A program made the translations under genes and the position numbers. Shown here one piece after another: positions 12,731 to 42,539 of a stretch of DNA of 64,000 nt (position 1 is the first letter of the stretch; the number at the start of each line of letters is the position of its first letter). The stretch lies in contig JAKSJG010000002.1 in the NCBI GenBank assembly GCA_024398365.1, forward strand, positions 1-64,000, written 5' to 3'. The notes below the pieces were generated by a model. That model worked only from the letters and a program-made list of their open reading frames with translations. It was not told the origin of the DNA and made no database searches. Source of the DNA: Bacteroidales bacterium. Lineage in GTDB: Bacteria > Bacteroidota > Bacteroidia > Bacteroidales > UBA932.

Positions 12731-14554
12731 TTAAAATGTTTTATACTTTATATCTCCTATCTGTCTGCCGTTGCGTATGGCAATGGCGGTAACTTTCTGC
12801 TGTCGGTTGATGACGAACGGCTTCTCGTATTTCGGCGAAGCCGCGGTAGGGATGCTGCCGTCAAGTGTGTAGTGGATCTCTGCGTCCGGAGCATCCACGC
12901 TGATGGTCACGACCTTGTCCTGCGGAGTGTCCGGATGGAATTCGATGAACGGGCTGAAGAAGGCCCTGCAGCTGCCCACACCCATATAGTCGAGGCGGCC
13001 GAAATGCTTCTCCAGACGGCGGGTGAAGCCGTCCCAGTCCTTGCCGGCAGTGGTCCAGCCAGCTTCGGCTATGGCACACATGCGCGGCCATGCCATATAT
13101 TCGACGCGTGCCGGGGTCGGCATATATTCTGTCCAGACGCAGCCCTCGACGCCTATGATGTATTTCTGTTCTTCCGGAGTAAGGACCGCCGGCACAGGTT
13201 CGTAGTCATACATAGTGCGGAGAGTGGTAGGTCCGCCCATGGCCAGAGGCTCGCTGTCAGGGTCGCCCTGCCAGTAGTCGAGATAATACTTCGGGTACGG
13301 AGCCATCACAACTTCGTGATGCTGCTGGGCGGCCTTGATGCCTCCCTCCTCCCCGAGCCAGCTCATCACCTTCGCATTAGGTGCGAGACCGCCCTGGAGT
13401 ATCTCATCCCAGCCGATGATCTCATGTCCCTTGGAATTGATATACTTCTCCATCCTGCAGATGAACCAGCTCTGAAGCTCGAATTCATCCTTGAGGCCGA
13501 GTTCCTTGATCAGTGCCTGGCAGTGCTCGCACTGCTTCCAGCTGGCCTTCGGGCATTCGTCGCCACCGATGTGCACAAGCTTGGAAGGGAAGAGTTCGAA
13601 CACCTCGTCCATCACGTCCTCGAGGAACTTGAAGGTCTCGTCCTTCGGACAGAACACCTGCTTGAATACGCCCCACTTGGTGGCAGTCTCATAGTGGTCC
13701 TCCAGACCGCAGGAGAGCTCCGGATAGCAGGAGATGGCAGCCAGTGCGTGGCCCGGCATCTCTATCTCCGGAATGATGGTGACATAGCGTTCAGCAGCAT
13801 ATTTGACAAGGTCACGGACCTCCTCCTGGGAATAATAGCCGCCGTGTGGAGTGCCGTCGTAGATGCCGCTCTTGAGCGAGCCGATGACGGTCTCCTTGCG
13901 CCACTGTCCCTTCTCGGTCAGCAGCGGATATTTCTTGATCTCGAGACGCCATCCCTGGTCCTCGGTCAGATGCCAGTGGAAGCGGTTGACCTTGTGGAGA
14001 GCCATCTCGTCGATGTATTTCTTGAGGAATTCAATGGTGAAAAAGTGAAGGCAGCAGTCCAGATGCATGCCCCTGTACGCAAAACGAGGACCGTCCTCTA
14101 TCTCACAGCAAGGCACGGTCCACTTTACTCCCTTTTGTCGGGTCTGGGCGAAAATCTCCTCCGGGAGGAGCTGGAACAGGGTCTGAAGCGCATAGAAAGC
14201 GCCTGCCCCATCTCCGTAATCTATCTCTATCCGATGCTCATCCACCTTTACCCTGTAATGCTCGCTTGAGAGCGAATTCAGACGGGTGAAGACTATCACA
14301 TCCTGCTGAGCGCCGCTGTCCGTCTTCAGCTCCCATCCCGCCGCAGTGCGTAATTTCCCGTTGAGGAAGCCGGCGATGCGGAGCATCTCCTCATCAGCAG
14401 GCACGGAGATGGCGGTATGCTTTGTCAGCTTGAAGTTGCCGTCCTTCTGCACCAGCGAAGCCGGTTGCGGTATGATGCTGATGGCTGCGCCGCTGGCTGC
14501 TGTCGCCGTCAGGGACAGGCAGAGCGCGTATAGTATGATGAGCAGTTTCTTCAT
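12731..14554 (-). CDS. Secreted GH20 beta-N-acetylhexosaminidase
   Basis: A 607-residue protein with a signal peptide (MKKLLIILYALCLSLTATAASG), an N-terminal GH20b domain (about 25-155) and the GH20 catalytic barrel. The catalytic pair is Asp332-Glu333 in VHIGGDECPK, and FHWHLTEDQGWRLEI and IIPEIEMPGHALAAI are family blocks. A short C-terminal domain (TISVDAPDAEIHYTLDGS) is a chitobiase/beta-hexosaminidase C-terminal domain. It removes terminal beta-linked GlcNAc (or GalNAc) by substrate-assisted catalysis. It lacks a lipobox, so it is probably periplasmic or secreted. It is nearly contiguous with murQ (4 bases) and with the upstream fusion gene (2 bases). Confidence 0.93.
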   Translation of the reverse strand: MKKLLIILYALCLSLTATAASGAAISIIPQPASLVQKDGNFKLTKHTAISVPADEEMLRIAGFLNGKLRTAAGWELKTDSGAQQDVIVFTRLNSLSSEHYRVKVDEHRIEIDYGDGAGAFYALQTLFQLLPEEIFAQTRQKGVKWTVPCCEIEDGPRFAYRGMHLDCCLHFFTIEFLKKYIDEMALHKVNRFHWHLTEDQGWRLEIKKYPLLTEKGQWRKETVIGSLKSGIYDGTPHGGYYSQEEVRDLVKYAAERYVTIIPEIEMPGHALAAISCYPELSCGLEDHYETATKWGVFKQVFCPKDETFKFLEDVMDEVFELFPSKLVHIGGDECPKASWKQCEHCQALIKELGLKDEFELQSWFICRMEKYINSKGHEIIGWDEILQGGLAPNAKVMSWLGEEGGIKAAQQHHEVVMAPYPKYYLDYWQGDPDSEPLAMGGPTTLRTMYDYEPVPAVLTPEEQKYIIGVEGCVWTEYMPTPARVEYMAWPRMCAIAEAGWTTAGKDWDGFTRRLEKHFGRLDYMGVGSCRAFFSPFIEFHPDTPQDKVVTISVDAPDAEIHYTLDGSIPTAASPKYEKPFVINRQQKVTAIAIRNGRQIGDIKYKTF

Positions 14555-35935: not shown

Positions 35936-37276
35936 CTAGAAGGTCACTGCGATTGAGTAAGGGACGCCGTTGAGGACGTCGGTACGGCCGATATACTGCT
36001 GGCCGCGCTCGTTTTCGAGAGCGGTGACTGTGGTGTTGCAATATACAGAGATGTAGAGCTGGCCGGCCTTAGGATTGTCGATGACGAGATACTTGTCAAA
36101 GCCGTGGGACATGTTGCCGTATTCTGCCACGTCGTTGAAGGCGAATTTGCCGTCAGCGGCGAAGAGGAACATATCGTAATCCTTGTTGCCCTTCACTGAC
36201 TTGAGGTCGATGCGGAGGCTCTTCACACCTTCCGGTACATTGACTACAAAGTGATGGTACTGCTTGTCGCCGATCTTGGTGAATGCTGGATCATTATCCT
36301 TGGTGCCCTTTGTCATCTGACGCGCCTTGCCGTTGACGAGTTCGCCCTTGAGCACAGGATCACCGTTGCCGTCGAGGGCATAACGCATCATGGCGGCAAA
36401 CATCTGGAGACGCTCGCCTGACATCATGCGCTCAGGGTGCGAACCTGTCACCACGAGACGACCTGTATTGCCTGATGCCTTGTATGCCCATGCATTGACC
36501 TTCTTGTCTATATTCGGCTTTACAGGATACTTGGTCTCATACTGCTTGTAACCGTCGTAGCGGAGCAGGATTTCAGTACCTTCAGGATACTCCTCCTCAT
36601 GCATGTAGCAGCCGCCGTTGTGGCGAACGCTGTCGATATACATATCGCCGCCGAAGTCATAATACTTGAGCAGAGGGCAATTATCCTCTACATAAAGACC
36701 AGTTGCAGATACATTGAGGCCTGTGCCTGTGATGTAGCCCGGCCATGCGCCGAAATACTCAGGATAGTCCTTTGGGCCAGTCTTGAACCAGCGGCCCTTG
36801 CTTGGCATGATAGAACCTGCGCAGGTACCTACGAAGGATCCGCCCGCATCATAGAATTTCTTGTAATTTGCCACGCCATCAGGGCCGAGGGAACGGCCGT
36901 GATTGGTGGACTGTCCGCCGTTGAGATATACAAGCCTGAAACGAGGTGCGCCGTCAGGATAGAGGAGCACACCGTTCTCATCGATTGCACTGCCCACGAA
37001 GGTATCGTGCTGGAGCTGCTTGTCATAAGCGCTGCCGCCCGATGTCCAGGAATAAGGATTGTCCACATCATCGTATGTCTTCTTGTCAAGAGAGGTGAAC
37101 CTCTCCATGGTCAGACCGAGGAAATCCACAGCCGGGATCGATGAATATGTGTTGAGTTCGATACCGCTGTCCATGAATATGTCCTTGTAGTAACCTGAAT
37201 AGCGGTTCTGTGCATTGAGGCTTCCGGATGCGAGCATTGCAGCGAGGCAGAGGCCGAGTGTGATGTTCTTTTTCAT
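35936..37276 (-). CDS. Secreted class I GATase-fold protein with PPC domain, copy 5 in transcription order
   Basis: A 446-residue exported protein (signal peptide ending SGSLNAQ, no lipobox). The central domain has the class I glutamine-amidotransferase fold of the BPL_N type: LLYPDGAPRFRLVYLNGG, nucleophile elbow GGSFVGTCAGS with Cys152, and His280-Pro281-Glu282 in VVTGSHPE, giving a full Cys-His-Glu triad. A conserved block DFGGDMYIDSVRHNGGCY lies between them. Residues about 338-445 are a pre-peptidase C-terminal (PPC) beta domain (YHHFVVNVPEGVKSLRIDL). Biochemical role unknown; an extracytoplasmic amidase or peptidase is plausible. Confidence 0.8.
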   Translation of the reverse strand: MKKNITLGLCLAAMLASGSLNAQNRYSGYYKDIFMDSGIELNTYSSIPAVDFLGLTMERFTSLDKKTYDDVDNPYSWTSGGSAYDKQLQHDTFVGSAIDENGVLLYPDGAPRFRLVYLNGGQSTNHGRSLGPDGVANYKKFYDAGGSFVGTCAGSIMPSKGRWFKTGPKDYPEYFGAWPGYITGTGLNVSATGLYVEDNCPLLKYYDFGGDMYIDSVRHNGGCYMHEEEYPEGTEILLRYDGYKQYETKYPVKPNIDKKVNAWAYKASGNTGRLVVTGSHPERMMSGERLQMFAAMMRYALDGNGDPVLKGELVNGKARQMTKGTKDNDPAFTKIGDKQYHHFVVNVPEGVKSLRIDLKSVKGNKDYDMFLFAADGKFAFNDVAEYGNMSHGFDKYLVIDNPKAGQLYISVYCNTTVTALENERGQQYIGRTDVLNGVPYSIAVTF

Positions 37277-37282
37277 ATGCGT

Positions 37283-38575
37283 TTAATAATTTACTTCGAT
37301 TGTGTAAGGAATTCCGTTGAGCACCTCGAGCTTGCCGCTGTACTGGGTGCCGTAGAAGGTATCGGCAGTCTCCACTGTCGTGTCGCAGAATACGGACACA
37401 TAGAGTTTGCCCGGCTTAGGATCGAGGATGCGGAGGGTCTTCTTGACATTGCGTCTCACATTGGAATATCTTGAATTGCTGCAGAATGCAAAGTCATTGT
37501 AGTCCGCATAGAGGTACAGGTCATAGCCCTTCTCGTATCCGGCCACCGGAGTGAGGATGATGTCGAGAGTGTCGATGCCTTCCGGAACCTCAACTGTGAA
37601 ATGATGGTACTGCTTGTCACCGATGCGTGTGTATTCAGGCTTGTTGTCCTGTGTCACGCAGTTCATCGTGCGCTTCTGACCCTTGACGAGTTCGCCCTTG
37701 ACGCGCGGCTTGCCGTTGCCGTCGAGGCAGTAGCGTACCATTGCGCACATCATGTCCAGCTGGTCGCCGCTGTACTCGCCTTCAGGGTGAGGACCGCAGG
37801 CCATGGCACGGCCGGTGTATTCATTCTCCTTGTGGCACCATACGGCACCGTTGCCGTTCATCGACTTCGGAGGCCAGTTGTAATTGAAGAGTATCTCGCC
37901 GCCCGGGATGAGGTCCTTGTACTCCATATAGCAGCCGCCGTTGTGATAGACGCTGTCGATATGGTTGTTCTTGAAATCATAATACTTGAGGGCCGGAGAG
38001 CCTTCAGGCACATCGACGCTGACATATGTATCGGCCAGGTGCGCGTTGGTGCAGACACCCGGATACACGCCGATGTATTCGTCGTAGATTTTGTCAGTGA
38101 CATTGCCGAGGGAATCCACCTTGCGTACGCCCTGGCAGCACAGGTATGCTCCGGCGCAGCTGCCGAGGTAGCTGCCGCCCGCCTTCACGAAGTCGCGGAT
38201 ATGCTGGCGGCCCGGTGCGGTGATTGTGCGTCCGTGGGTGGCGCCGCTGCCACCGTTGACATAGAGCAGCCTGAAACGCGGCGCGCCGTCAGGGTAGAGC
38301 AATACGCCGTTGATATCGAGTTCGGTGCCGACGAATGCTGCATCCTGGGCCAGAGTGTCACCGTAGAACTGATCCTTGTTCTTGCTGGCTCCGCGCACAT
38401 TCTCGAGAGTGAGGCCGAGAGCGCGTGTGGCAGGAAGGTCCTTCCTGGAGGAAAGATACACTCCGCCATCCATGAATACGTCCTTGTAATAACCTTCGGA
38501 ACCGGTCTGGGCGAATGAACTTGCTGCGGAGAGGCTCATGGCCGCCATGCAGCAGAAAAGAAATATCTTTTTCAT
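37283..38575 (-). CDS. Secreted class I GATase-fold protein with PPC domain, copy 4
   Basis: A 430-residue paralogue (signal peptide ending SSFAQ). Cys140 in GGSYLGSCAGAY and His263-Pro264-Glu265 in CGPHPEGE preserve the triad. It is the most divergent copy: the shared DFGGD..DSVRHNGG block reads DFKNNHIDSVYHNGG, the HPE motif is preceded by CGP instead of TGS, and RAMAC replaces RLVVT. The PPC domain occupies about the last 105 residues (YHHFTVEVPEGIDTLDIIL). It is separated from copy 3 by 2 bases and from copy 5 by 6 bases, so it is certainly in the same operon. Confidence 0.8.
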   Translation of the reverse strand: MKKIFLFCCMAAMSLSAASSFAQTGSEGYYKDVFMDGGVYLSSRKDLPATRALGLTLENVRGASKNKDQFYGDTLAQDAAFVGTELDINGVLLYPDGAPRFRLLYVNGGSGATHGRTITAPGRQHIRDFVKAGGSYLGSCAGAYLCCQGVRKVDSLGNVTDKIYDEYIGVYPGVCTNAHLADTYVSVDVPEGSPALKYYDFKNNHIDSVYHNGGCYMEYKDLIPGGEILFNYNWPPKSMNGNGAVWCHKENEYTGRAMACGPHPEGEYSGDQLDMMCAMVRYCLDGNGKPRVKGELVKGQKRTMNCVTQDNKPEYTRIGDKQYHHFTVEVPEGIDTLDIILTPVAGYEKGYDLYLYADYNDFAFCSNSRYSNVRRNVKKTLRILDPKPGKLYVSVFCDTTVETADTFYGTQYSGKLEVLNGIPYTIEVNY

Positions 38576-38577
38576 GA

Positions 38578-39891
38578 TTATTTGTTCAAAGTGGCTTTGA
38601 TGATGTATGGCACACCGTTGAGCACGTCAACGCGGCCTATGTACTGTTCGCCGTTGCGTGTGTCAAGCACGTCAACTGTGGTGTCGCAGAATACTGAGAT
38701 ATAGAGCTTGCCTGCCTTAGGGTTGTCAATGACGAGGGTCTTGTCAATACCGTCCCTGACGTCGAACCAGTTGGCTACGTCATTGAAAGCGAATTCGCCG
38801 TTGGCGGCATAGAGGAAGAGGTCGTAGTTGCTGTAACCCGGAACGGACTTGAGATCAACTGACACGCTCTTGGTGCCCTTAGGCACGTCGATGGTGAAAT
38901 GATGGTACTGCTTGTCACCGATCTTGGTGTATGCAGGGTCATTGTCCTGTGAGGACTTGAGCATCTCGCGGGCCTCGCCGTCAACCAGAGCGGCCTTCAC
39001 CTGAGGGACTCCCTGACCTTCGAGAGCGTACTTGAACATGGCTGCGAACATCTGGAGACGCTCGTCATTTACGCCACGCTCAGGATGCGAACCTGTCACC
39101 ACGAGACGTCCGCTCTTTTCATTTGCCTTGTATGCCCAGCAGTTGACCTGCTTGTGGACGCCGTGTCCGAGGGTGTCACGGCCCGGCCATGCGGTCACGA
39201 AACGCATGAGAATCTCGGTACCCTTCGGCATCTCATAAGTGTTCATATAGCAGCCGCCGTTGTGGCGCACGCTGTCGATGTATCTGTCACCGCCGAAATC
39301 GTAATATTTGAGCAGAGGGCATTTCTTCTCCACGGTATTGTCAGGATACTTGCCGTTGATGCCGGTACCTGTGACATAACCCGGCCAGATGCCGAGATAT
39401 TTGTCATTTTCATTGGTTTTTCCTGACTTGGTGGAATATGTACCCTTGGAGCACAGGTATGCTCCGGCACAGGTACCTATGTAAGAACCGCCGTTCGCAT
39501 AGAAAGTGCGGATGTTCTCGAGGCCCTTCGGGGTGAGGAATGTGCCGTGAGCGGTGGCCTTGCCGCCATTAACGTAGATGACCTTGAAGCGCGGTGCGCC
39601 GTCAGGATAGATCAGGATACCGTTCTCATCGATCTCGCTGCCGGCGAATACATTCACCATCAGCTGTTTCTCATACTCTGTGGCACGGTCTGCCTTGCCG
39701 CCTTCCCAGGTGCAGATGCGCTCCATGCTGAGATTGAGCAGCTTTGCTGCCGGAAGGTCGTCAAAAGTGTTGAGCGGAATACCGCAATCCATGAAGAAAT
39801 CCTTGTAAAAGCCTTCTGCGCGGGTCTGGGCCATTGCGCAGGTGCCTGACATCAATGCGCAGGCGGCGAGAAGCATAATCTTTCTTTTCAT
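38578..39891 (-). CDS. Secreted class I GATase-fold protein with PPC domain, copy 3
   Basis: A 437-residue paralogue (signal peptide ending GTCAMAQ). Cys141 in GGSYIGTCAGAYLCSKG and His269-Pro270-Glu271 in VVTGSHPERG are kept, as is DFGGDRYIDSVRHNGGCY. The C-terminal PPC domain (YHHFTIDVPKGTKSVSVDLKSVPG) ends with YIGRVDVLNGVPYIIKATL. With copies 1 and 5 it shares the long central stretch LGIWPGYVTGTG/LLKYYDFGG. The ORF is intact and lies 2 bases from its downstream neighbour. Confidence 0.8.
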   Translation of the reverse strand: MKRKIMLLAACALMSGTCAMAQTRAEGFYKDFFMDCGIPLNTFDDLPAAKLLNLSMERICTWEGGKADRATEYEKQLMVNVFAGSEIDENGILIYPDGAPRFKVIYVNGGKATAHGTFLTPKGLENIRTFYANGGSYIGTCAGAYLCSKGTYSTKSGKTNENDKYLGIWPGYVTGTGINGKYPDNTVEKKCPLLKYYDFGGDRYIDSVRHNGGCYMNTYEMPKGTEILMRFVTAWPGRDTLGHGVHKQVNCWAYKANEKSGRLVVTGSHPERGVNDERLQMFAAMFKYALEGQGVPQVKAALVDGEAREMLKSSQDNDPAYTKIGDKQYHHFTIDVPKGTKSVSVDLKSVPGYSNYDLFLYAANGEFAFNDVANWFDVRDGIDKTLVIDNPKAGKLYISVFCDTTVDVLDTRNGEQYIGRVDVLNGVPYIIKATLNK

Positions 39892-39912
39892 ATTATTGTA
39901 TTTTGATTGTTT

Positions 39913-41220
39913 CTATTTGGTGACAGTAGCTTTGATGATGTAAGGCACGCCGTTGAGCACATCCGTGCGGCCGCTGTACTGCGTACCGTAACGGCCTGAG
40001 ACAGCGTCCACCGTGGTGTCGCAGAACACAGAGATGTAGAGCTTGCCCGGCTTGGGGTTGCGGATGACCATCACCTTGTCAATGCCGTCGCTGACGTCGA
40101 ACCAGCGGGCAACGTCATTGAATGCGAACTGACCCGGAGCGGCATAGAGGAAGAGGTCGTAGTTGCTGCGGCCCTTGACGGACTTGAGCTCCACTGCAAC
40201 TTCTTTTGCGCCCTTCGGCACGTCAATGGTGAAATGATGGTACTGCTTGTCGCCGAGCATAGTGTATTCCGGCTTGCCGTCCCTTGTGGAGGCTGTCATC
40301 TCGCGGGCCTCGCCGCTGGTCAGCGCAGCCTTGACCTGAGGCGCACCGTTGCCGTCGAGGGCATAATGCAGCATGGCGGTGAAGAGCTGGAGCACTTCGC
40401 CGGTCTGCGCGATCTCAGGATGGGATCCGGTGGAGACCATGCGTCCGCTCTTCGCATCCGGCTTGTAGCCGAGCACGGTTGTCTGGCCGTCGATGGAGCC
40501 GTACAGCAGACCCTGTATGGTGTCAGCCTTGAAACGCAGCAGGGATTCGGTGCCTTCCGGCGCCATATAGTCGTTGAAATATGAACCGTTGTTGTGGCGC
40601 ACGCTGTCCACGCGCATATCTCCGCCGAAGTCGTAATAGTCCAGCAGAGGGCTCTTCTTGTCAACTGTCAGGGTTGTCCAGGAATCAAAAAGTCTGGTAC
40701 CGGTGGTGTAACCCGGCCATACGCCGATGTACATCTCCCTGTCAACAGGCTTGCCGTCCCTGTCCTTGTAATAATAACCCTTGGAGCAGAGGATGGTACC
40801 CGCACAGGAGCTTGAATAGCTTCCGCCGTTGCGGAAGAATTCGCGTATGTGCGCGCGGCCTTCCTCGGTGATGCATTCTCCGTGCCTGTTGGCTGTACCG
40901 CCAGGTACGTAGAGCAGTCTGAAGCGCGGTGCGCCGTCAGGATAGAGCAGCAGGCCGTTCTCGTCCTGGTCGGTGCCGACGAAACATTCCTGCATCCTTG
41001 CCAGCTCGAAAGGAGTTGCATTCTGCGCACTGTTGTATGAGAGGTTGACCTCCGTCGAGAGGTTGAGCACCCTTGCCGCAGCAAGGTATTCGTGATTGGA
41101 CATACTCGGACCTGAATCTATGAAGAGGTCCTTGTAGAAGCCGTTCGCACGGGTCTGCGCGGACATTGACGCCATGGCGAGAATGAAGCAGGCCGGAATG
41201 AGCAGACAGGTCTTTCTCAT
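39913..41220 (-). CDS. Secreted class I GATase-fold protein with PPC domain, copy 2
   Basis: A 435-residue paralogue (signal peptide ending ASMSAQ). The elbow is altered to GGSYSSSCAGTILCSKG but keeps Cys139, and His267-Pro268-Glu269 in STGSHPEIA is kept. The usual YVNGG loop before the elbow is YVPGG, and HNGGCY is HNNGSYF. The PPC domain (YHHFTIDVPKGAKEVAVELKSVKG) is well preserved. The spread of changes around, but not in, the triad hints at different substrates among copies. Confidence 0.8.
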   Translation of the reverse strand: MRKTCLLIPACFILAMASMSAQTRANGFYKDLFIDSGPSMSNHEYLAAARVLNLSTEVNLSYNSAQNATPFELARMQECFVGTDQDENGLLLYPDGAPRFRLLYVPGGTANRHGECITEEGRAHIREFFRNGGSYSSSCAGTILCSKGYYYKDRDGKPVDREMYIGVWPGYTTGTRLFDSWTTLTVDKKSPLLDYYDFGGDMRVDSVRHNNGSYFNDYMAPEGTESLLRFKADTIQGLLYGSIDGQTTVLGYKPDAKSGRMVSTGSHPEIAQTGEVLQLFTAMLHYALDGNGAPQVKAALTSGEAREMTASTRDGKPEYTMLGDKQYHHFTIDVPKGAKEVAVELKSVKGRSNYDLFLYAAPGQFAFNDVARWFDVSDGIDKVMVIRNPKPGKLYISVFCDTTVDAVSGRYGTQYSGRTDVLNGVPYIIKATVTK

Positions 41221-41231
41221 AGCTTAATCAT

Positions 41232-42539
41232 TTATTTGTTGATAACAGTCGCCTTGATGACATATGGCACGCCGTTGAGCACCTCCGTACGGCCTACGTA
41301 CTGAGGACCGCACTGTGTGGACCTGGTCTCGACGGTAGTCTCGCAGAATACTGAGATGTAAAGCTTGCCGGCCTTCGGATTGTCGATGACGAGGTTCTTC
41401 TGTGCACCGTAGTCAATGTTCTGCCACTGTGCATTGTCGCTGAGCGCCGGAGCGCCGCTGGCAGCGAAGAGGGAAAGATCGAAGATCGATGCGCCCTTGC
41501 CAGGAGTGAGCTCCACCACCACCTGCTTCGCACCCTTAGGCACGTCGATGGTGAAATGGTGATACTGACGGTCGCCTATCCTTGCGAACTCAGGCTTCTT
41601 GTCGGAAGTCTTGCAGCTCATCACGCGCTCCTCGCCGCTGACGAGATTGGCCTTGACCTGAGGCGCGCCGTTGCCGTCCATCGCGTAACGGAGCATTGAG
41701 GCGAACATCTCCAGACGCTCGCCGCCCATCATACGCTCAGGATGTGAACCGGTCACCACGAGACGGCCGCTCTTTTGATTTGCCTTGTATGCCCAGGCAT
41801 TGCCCATATTGTGGATGGAATGCTTGAGATTGATGGTGTCCGCGATGAAGCGGGCCAGTATTTCAGTTCCTGCAGGGACAGCATCCGGACGGATGCAGCA
41901 GCCGCCGTTGTGGCGCACGCTGTCTATCCTGCGGTCGCCGCCGAAGTCGGAATATTTGAGCAGTGCGCTCTTCTTCTCCACTGCAAGGGCGGTGTAGCTC
42001 TGATCCAGGCCGGTGGAGACGGTGTAGCCCGGCCAGATGCCGAGATATGCCTCCTTGTCATTCTCCTTGCCGCTCGAATAGGAGTATGTACCCTTGCTGC
42101 AGATGAATGCGCCGGCGCAGGTGCCGATGTAGCTGCCGCCGTTGGCGTAGAATGTGCGTATGGTCTCGCGGCCCTCGGCGCCGAGCTGCTTGCCGTGAGT
42201 GGTGGCACTGCCGCCTATGATGTAGATCACCCTGAAGCGAGGTGCTCCGTCAGGATAAAGCAGAGGACCGTTCTCATCCAGCTGGCTTCCAACAAAGATA
42301 TTCTTCATCATGGATTTCTCATATACAGTGGCCGAATCCACATCGCCGTCAACATCGTGACTGGTGAAGTTCTCCACGGTGAGACCGAGCAGCTTGGCTG
42401 CCGGGAGGTCGTAGAAGCAATCGACACCCACTCCGGAGTCTATGAACAAATCCTTATAAAAGCCGTTCCTGGAATTCTGGGCCGGAAGAACCTGCAGTCC
42501 TGCAAGCAGCAACACACCCGCTAACAATGATTTTTTCAT
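41232..42539 (-). CDS. Secreted class I GATase-fold protein with PPC domain, copy 1
   Basis: A 435-residue paralogue (signal peptide ending GLQVLPAQ) and the first gene of the five-gene array. Cys141 in GGSYIGTCAGAFICSKG and His266-Pro267-Glu268 in VVTGSHPERM are present; the shared block reads DFGGDRRIDSVRHNGGCC. All five copies open the mature protein with a form of GFYKD(L/I/V)F(I/M)D. The PPC domain is at about 330-435. The array is divergent from parE, and a plausible minus-strand promoter lies 24 bases upstream of the ATG. Confidence 0.8.
   Translation of the reverse strand: MKKSLLAGVLLLAGLQVLPAQNSRNGFYKDLFIDSGVGVDCFYDLPAAKLLGLTVENFTSHDVDGDVDSATVYEKSMMKNIFVGSQLDENGPLLYPDGAPRFRVIYIIGGSATTHGKQLGAEGRETIRTFYANGGSYIGTCAGAFICSKGTYSYSSGKENDKEAYLGIWPGYTVSTGLDQSYTALAVEKKSALLKYSDFGGDRRIDSVRHNGGCCIRPDAVPAGTEILARFIADTINLKHSIHNMGNAWAYKANQKSGRLVVTGSHPERMMGGERLEMFASMLRYAMDGNGAPQVKANLVSGEERVMSCKTSDKKPEFARIGDRQYHHFTIDVPKGAKQVVVELTPGKGASIFDLSLFAASGAPALSDNAQWQNIDYGAQKNLVIDNPKAGKLYISVFCETTVETRSTQCGPQYVGRTEVLNGVPYVIKATVINK

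What the first reader, a model, noticed from the sequence alone, without database searches (positions are those of the whole stretch)
35936..42539. Five tandem secreted class I amidotransferase-fold proteins with PPC domains
Five co-directional paralogues (430-446 residues), spaced 2-21 bases, each have a signal peptide, a GATase-fold domain with a full Cys...HPE triad and a C-terminal PPC domain. Class I GATases normally feed ammonia to a cytosolic synthetase; here there is no partner and the proteins are exported. PPC domains usually occur on secreted peptidases. This looks like an expanded, undescribed family of extracytoplasmic amidases or peptidases.
Basis: partly seen in the sequence, partly recalled or inferred. 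Interest (0 to 1): 0.82.

Follow-up and report, generated by a model that had tools for sequence, protein, structure and literature searches.

The report
Expanded exported amidotransferase-fold cysteine hydrolase family
A bacterium whose relatives live in ruminant guts carries 35 complete copies of a protein that keeps the Cys, His and Glu of an amidotransferase-type active site, five of them side by side in this window; they are predicted to be exported and likely cut amide bonds in peptides outside the cytoplasm, and about half carry an extra front domain predicted to fold like pilus proteins.

The parts
41232..42539 (-). GATase-PPC gene A1 (435 aa; first of the run as transcribed)
   Evidence: BPL_N 43.4 bits, PPC 26.4; model pLDDT 93.2
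39913..41220 (-). GATase-PPC gene A2 (435 aa)
   Evidence: (BPL_N 27.9; PPC 21.8, below cut-off)
38578..39891 (-). GATase-PPC gene A3 (437 aa); 64% identical to the A gene of sister genome G013
   Evidence: (BPL_N 41.3, PPC 31.0)
37283..38575 (-). GATase-PPC gene B (430 aa), groups with the second gene of the A-B pair of four sister genomes
   Evidence: (BPL_N 48.0, no PPC hit)
35936..37276 (-). GATase-PPC gene A4 (446 aa; last of the run)
   Evidence: (BPL_N 33.6, PPC 28.7)
42117..42119 (-). codon of Cys141 in A1, predicted nucleophile (GTCAG elbow, strand 136-140 then helix 142-146)
41736..41744 (-). codons of His266-Pro267-Glu268 in A1 (HPE), predicted base and acid of the triad
41664..42473 (-). 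GATase-fold domain of A1 (residues 23-292, predicted)
41235..41657 (-). PPC beta-sandwich of A1 (about residues 295-435, predicted)
   Evidence: collagenase PPC 5sv5

Best explanation
The five genes encode proteins that keep the Cys and the His-Pro-Glu of a class I amidotransferase site; they are predicted to share that fold and to be exported, and most likely work as stand-alone cysteine amide hydrolases that would cleave glutaminyl or gamma-glutamyl amide bonds of peptides outside the cytoplasm. Inferred mechanism: Cys141, in the nucleophile elbow and activated by His266/Glu268, attacks the side-chain or gamma-glutamyl amide; the G109-G110 strand end forms the oxyanion hole; an acyl-thioester forms and water releases the acid, as in Pdx2, GGH and PuuD (their chemistry is recalled), with no ammonia channel and no synthetase. 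The PPC domain (and in long paralogues a fimbrillin-like lipoprotein domain, and a fused or neighbouring LRR protein) would anchor the enzyme and bring it to its polymer. Shown: Pfam domains, conserved residues, copy number, low dN/dS in the pairs tested, gene linkage, phylogeny. Inferred: fold, export, activity, bond type, a role in feeding amino acids into fermentation.
Confidence: 0.5

Rival explanations
1. They are true endo- or exopeptidases: the same Cys-His-Glu site cuts alpha-peptide bonds of dietary or host protein, as the PPC domain of many secreted peptidases suggests.
For: PPC part matches collagenase PPC/collagen-binding domains; S51/PepE resemblance below cut-off (at most 17.0 bits against 23.9 for S51); LRR partners could capture protein; neighbours of peptidase family C69 and of C45/AAT type in some loci.
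Confidence: 0.22
2. They are non-catalytic binders: a GATase-fold surface lectin or peptide receptor like the levan-binding protein of the Sus utilisome.
Against: Binders do not need the triad, yet it is kept in 93 of 93. In DUF4960 loci of other genomes none of 31 long plus-strand ORF rows (11 of 15 loci; some rows are the same ORF twice, and not all are DUF4960) has both G-x-C-x-G and HPE (a rough control).
Confidence: 0.12
3. They are surface transamidases or ligases that use the thioester to cross-link fimbrillin-like proteins or to attach amines.
For: Thioester chemistry (inferred), fusion to a pilin-like domain and adjacency to a second pilin-like LRR protein.
Against: The five window genes lack the pilin-like domain, and so do the low-copy relatives that I looked at by length (about 420-450 aa); no sortase-like motif was sought; no known GATase-fold ligase of this type is recalled.
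Confidence: 0.07
4. They are ordinary amidotransferase subunits passing ammonia to a synthetase.
For: Fold and triad.
Against: Predicted export, a fused PPC, no synthetase domain or neighbour in the clusters listed, 36 places.
Confidence: 0.02

Closest known systems
PdxT/Pdx2 (YaaE) glutaminase
   Different: PdxT is a cytosolic subunit of PLP synthase (recalled); these are predicted exported, twice as long, with PPC; TIGR03800 at most 12.5 bits against 105.55 and no PdxT match in this genome (79% complete).
Peptidase C26: gamma-glutamyl hydrolase, PuuD, SpuA
   Different: No Pfam C26 hit; hhalign probability 1.6%; no PPC in the four C26 proteins scanned; substrate unknown here.
BPL_N (PF09825), N-terminal domain of biotin-protein ligase
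   Same: HMM above cut-off in 5 of 5.
   Different: No biotin-ligase domain; function of BPL_N is not known (recalled).
SGBP-lev (BT1761) and DUF4960, ThuA-like proteins
   Same: GATase fold in Bacteroidetes surface proteins.
   Different: DUF4960 below cut-off; both triad motifs together not seen in DUF4960 loci (rough).
FimA/Mfa-like fimbrillins (PF13149; 3t2l, 3ufi, 4k4k, 3sy6)
   Same: Predicted fold of the N-terminal 270 residues of long paralogues (3t2l E 2.5e-9); six of the 120 listed sequence kin are annotated PF13149.
   Different: Followed by GATase-PPC; absent from the five window genes.

Membership tests
Pfam BPL_N (PF09825) | HMM score above gathering (24.2 bits) | tested here: met
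   5 of 5
Pfam BPL_N (PF09825) | fused to a biotin-protein ligase catalytic domain (type architecture, recalled) | tested here: not met
   no ligase domain in 5 window and 10 long paralogues scanned
PPC (PF04151) | HMM score above gathering (25.9 bits) | tested here: inconclusive
   met in 3 of 5, below in 1, absent in 1; fold match to 5sv5
Class I glutamine amidotransferase fold | fold with nucleophile-elbow Cys, His-x-Glu and GG strand end | tested here: met
   (predicted model); Cys-His distance not measured
Class I glutamine amidotransferase (functional) | ammonia delivered to a synthetase domain or partner | tested here: inconclusive
   no synthetase domain; none among recurrent neighbours printed (clusters of 3 or more); a distant partner is not excluded
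Peptidase C26 (PF07722) | Pfam HMM above gathering (20.5 bits) | tested here: not met
   not listed at E up to 1 for any of the five
Peptidase C26 (PF07722) | hydrolysis of gamma-glutamyl amide bonds | not testable with these tools
   no assay
Peptidase S51 (PF03575) | HMM above gathering (23.9 bits); Ser nucleophile (recalled) | tested here: not met
   at most 11.8 bits in the five (17.0 in long paralogues); Cys in 93 of 93
DUF4960 / SGBP-lev glycan binders | HMM above cut-off (29.2 bits) | tested here: not met
   at most 16 bits
Fimbrillin-like (Mfa/FimA) proteins, long paralogues only | pilin fold in the N-terminal domain | tested here: met
   on one model; sequence kin annotated PF13149; Pfam itself gave no hit in the ten scanned
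Fimbrillin-like (Mfa/FimA) proteins, long paralogues only | polymerisation into a pilus | not testable with these tools
   no experiment

The most novel reading that the evidence does not exclude
A protein/peptide counterpart of the Sus glycan systems: a surface repertoire of dozens of GATase-fold cysteine amide hydrolases, diversified by duplication, each displayed by a fimbrillin-like lipoprotein or exported with PPC and many paired or fused with their own LRR recognition protein, each set serving a different amide-bearing polymer.
Probability: 0.3. Interest if true: 0.85.

Novelty: new variant of a known kind. Interest (0 to 1): 0.66.

Why it matters
Class I amidotransferase domains are textbook cytosolic ammonia donors. 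Here roughly 2% of a small genome's genes (gene number assumed, about 1,700) encode them as predicted exported or surface proteins with no synthetase seen, every aligned copy keeping its catalytic residues. If they hydrolyse amide bonds outside the cell, they would be a large unassigned activity in herbivore guts, where nitrogen release matters, and the genus, with 0 to 36 copies, gives a ready comparative test. They also show fimbrillin-like domains apparently used as enzyme carriers.

Tried and rejected
Rejected: (1) ordinary amidotransferase subunit: no synthetase seen and predicted export. (2) S51, PfpI, C26 by sequence: no hit above cut-off in the five. (3) 'Only five paralogues': 36 places. 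(4) A run of duplicates peculiar to this genome alone: the A-B pair is older; the extra A copies were found only here among the genomes in that tree. Not tested: T9SS tails, PADLOC.

Led nowhere: phmmer against PDB with one sequence gave mostly chance hits. Paper searches: BPL_N + Bacteroidetes (0), PF09825 (1, listing only, unrelated title), biotin-protein ligase + amidotransferase terms (43: 0), 'BPL-N domain' (67: 0), PPC + amidotransferase + Bacteroidales (68: 0), amidotransferase-like/gamma-glutamyl terms (79: 8 listed; passages of two read; the Francisella glutathione paper gave nothing used here), GGH residues (80: 0), utilisome (78: 6 held, 5 listed; passages of one read), fimbrillin terms (81: 27 held, 8 listed, none opened). 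That I found no description rests on these searches of open-access PMC only. PdxT could not be aligned from relatives because none of 61 genomes gave a match. One homologous-protein search and one Foldseek search were left unused.

Limits of counts: one search scored at most 28 candidates per genome and at most 7, so copy numbers are taken. One search left out ORFs under 200 aa (the fragment at a contig end, C62), two own copies fetched later (L210, L211; Cys and HPE motifs seen, G-G not looked at), one place of G013 and one of G029 that I did not fetch, and all of G019. One search parsed 80 GATase genes against 88 non-window ones (the rest were lost, probably to its ORF-overlap filter), and did not flag the two L024 fusions (reason not examined). 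Its LRR profile was built from the five own-genome fused tails, so these match by construction; one search compares them with six own-genome partners directly. In the sister genomes 'LRR' means a match to that profile, not a Pfam hit. A2 and A4 used 44 and 75 of the 120 listed hits (of 1001). The 12 pairs were picked by me from sister rows of the tree.
Full report
What is there. Five ORFs on the - strand, 35936-42539, 430-446 aa, 2-21 nt apart, 44-59% identical to the first, with one invariant Cys (C141 of 41232-42539) and one invariant H266-P267-E268. BPL_N is above cut-off in all five; PPC is above cut-off in three. NCBIfam gives nothing above cut-off. N-termini look like Sec signals by eye.

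Copy number. In the window's genome (1.94 Mb, 79% complete) the profile finds 36 places at E below 1e-20, 35 of them complete domains and one a fragment at a contig end, plus one chance-level row. In 40 genomes of the genus (own included) 32 have at least one; seven have six or more (36, 17, 16, 12, 9, 8, 6), the rest 0-3. In an even sample of the order (247 genomes, the others chosen at 90% completeness or better) none of the 246 others has one at 1e-20. Yet one search found 278 relatives in named records and kept 80: nearly all labelled Bacteroidales, Bacteroidia, Bacteroidaceae, Bacteroidota, Prevotella or Alistipes and the like, one Oscillospiraceae; many titles name ruminant or deer guts, others have another source or none stated. 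So the family is patchy across the order.

No dead copies seen. 93 of 93 domains from six genomes keep G109, G110, C141, H266, P267, E268 and also P96, D97, R101, G213, D323, Q325, H327; two more own copies show the Cys and HPE motifs. The 12 ortholog pairs that I picked have dN/dS 0.08-0.16. That speaks for catalysis and against a pure binding role.

Architectures. Fifteen of the 28 other own copies parsed, and two fetched later (L210, L211), have the front domain: 17 of 35. A simple lipobox pattern flags 12 of the first 15. Of the 120 listed sequence kin of this front domain six are annotated PF13149 (fimbrillin-like), and others carry LRR, PF02368 or PF09603 domains instead of GATase. The long model (pLDDT 91) matches Bacteroides fimbrillins (3t2l E 2.5e-9, 3ufi, 4k4k, 3sy6). 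Pfam itself has no hit there in the ten scanned. The own genome has 68 places with this front domain, so the GATase module is one of several cargoes. At least six copies carry a C-terminal LRR module: L024:2295 and L026:2184 with Pfam DUF285 above cut-off, L018 twice and L024:4406 by BLAST to DUF285 partners, and L114 by my profile.

LRR partners. In six genomes 18 of 80 GATase genes are followed on the same strand by a gene for a fimbrillin-like protein with this LRR module; 17 lie between -7 and +18 nt and one predicted ORF overlaps by 200 nt. The six own-genome partners reach Pfam's DUF285 cut-off (two shown as whole proteins). The LRR tails of the five own-genome fusions match those of the six partners in 30 of 30 pairs (E 7e-17 or better). 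So enzyme and LRR occur both fused and as neighbours, the classical sign of a working pair. By my count one search lists 18 non-fused DUF285 ORFs, and seven adjoin a GATase gene (six downstream, one upstream at L025), where below one would be expected if genes were placed at random (rough estimate, about 1,700 genes assumed).

Operon of the low-copy kin. In 11 distinct genomes or records the gene starts 2-9 nt behind butyrate kinase: G001, G003, G004, G007, G011, G022, G026, G036 and record L041 with ackA, ptb and buk all in view, L081 with ptb-buk and G028 with buk only, both cut by contig ends. The nine G genomes have 1-3 copies. Of the 100 loci examined, many being the same genome twice, 33 hold one of these genes or the MFS pair, not all adjacent. 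NCBIfam for one example: buk 515.6 and ackA 487.9 bits, above cut-off; ptb best hit below its equivalog cut-off but PTA_PTB above Pfam's. In five other genomes (G012, G014, G020, G061, G062) two MFS transporters precede it. Three Prevotella loci have a tandem pair next to a C69-family gene (Pfam above, NCBIfam below cut-off); one locus was tested and has a C45/AAT-type neighbour (Pfam above, NCBIfam below). These contexts fit peptide or amino-acid use, but ackA-ptb-buk also serves sugar fermentation.

History. A quick ML tree of 117 rows (SH-aLRT only): four window genes (A) group with the A gene of five sister genomes (99), the fifth (37283-38575, B) with the B gene of four (100); A is next to the butyrate-kinase and MFS copies (97). 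In four sisters A and B lie side by side (coordinates). So the window most likely holds an ancestral A-B pair in which A has become four. Most other own copies fall in a separate radiation of 57 rows (99) that holds the fimbrillin-fused copies and some without the front domain, partly shared among genomes, partly private to this one.

A parallel that bears on function. One search finds four Peptidase C26 places in the window's genome. All have an exported-looking start by eye: two lipoproteins, one with a signal-like start, and one lipoprotein of 490 aa whose front is the same fimbrillin-like domain (L207:854-2326, C26 91.1 bits). So this organism appears to display two GATase-fold families, filed apart by Pfam, the same way. 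C26 and this family align with Cys, HPE and a further His in register, but hhalign gives only 1.6% probability.

Conclusion. Best reading: exported stand-alone cysteine amide hydrolases acting on glutaminyl or gamma-glutamyl bonds, by a thioester on Cys141. That they are active enzymes I hold at about 0.8, the bond type at about 0.5. Peptidase, binder and transamidase remain. It is a known fold and Pfam family used in a new way, number and architecture.

Noticed in passing
L207:854-2326 (+), L208:1072-1836 (-), L208:1849-2619 (-), L209:1345-2136 (+): Four exported-looking Peptidase C26 proteins in the window's genome; L207 has the fimbrillin-like front domain.
   Followed up: partly
L010:1869-3173 (+) and L010:5922-7229 (-): Two copies share an apparently identical C-terminal third (from the HPE region through PPC) while their front parts differ, which looks like gene conversion (by eye).
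   Followed up: no
window:14556-17675 (-): A ceramidase-type N-terminal domain (PF04734, 36.5 bits) fused to a GH20 hexosaminidase, beside a second GH20 gene at 12731-14554.
   Followed up: no
window:62875-63996 (-), running past the window edge: ORF lies in the 737-aa frame of a fimbrillin-like DUF285-LRR protein (C12:63355-64875).
   Followed up: no
window:33376-35058 (+): Aspartate-alanine-exchanger-type permease (PF06826) converging on the gene run; opposite strand, so not in the same operon.
   Followed up: no
window:35121-35726 (-): 201-aa ORF with signal-like start, no Pfam hit, 209 nt downstream of the run.
   Followed up: partly
G000, 68 places: Large repertoire of fimbrillin-like proteins; by eye other cargoes include LRR, FSMPD-like, beta-helix, lipase-like, SGNH-like and CotH-like parts (Pfam not run on these apart from DUF285).
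   Followed up: partly
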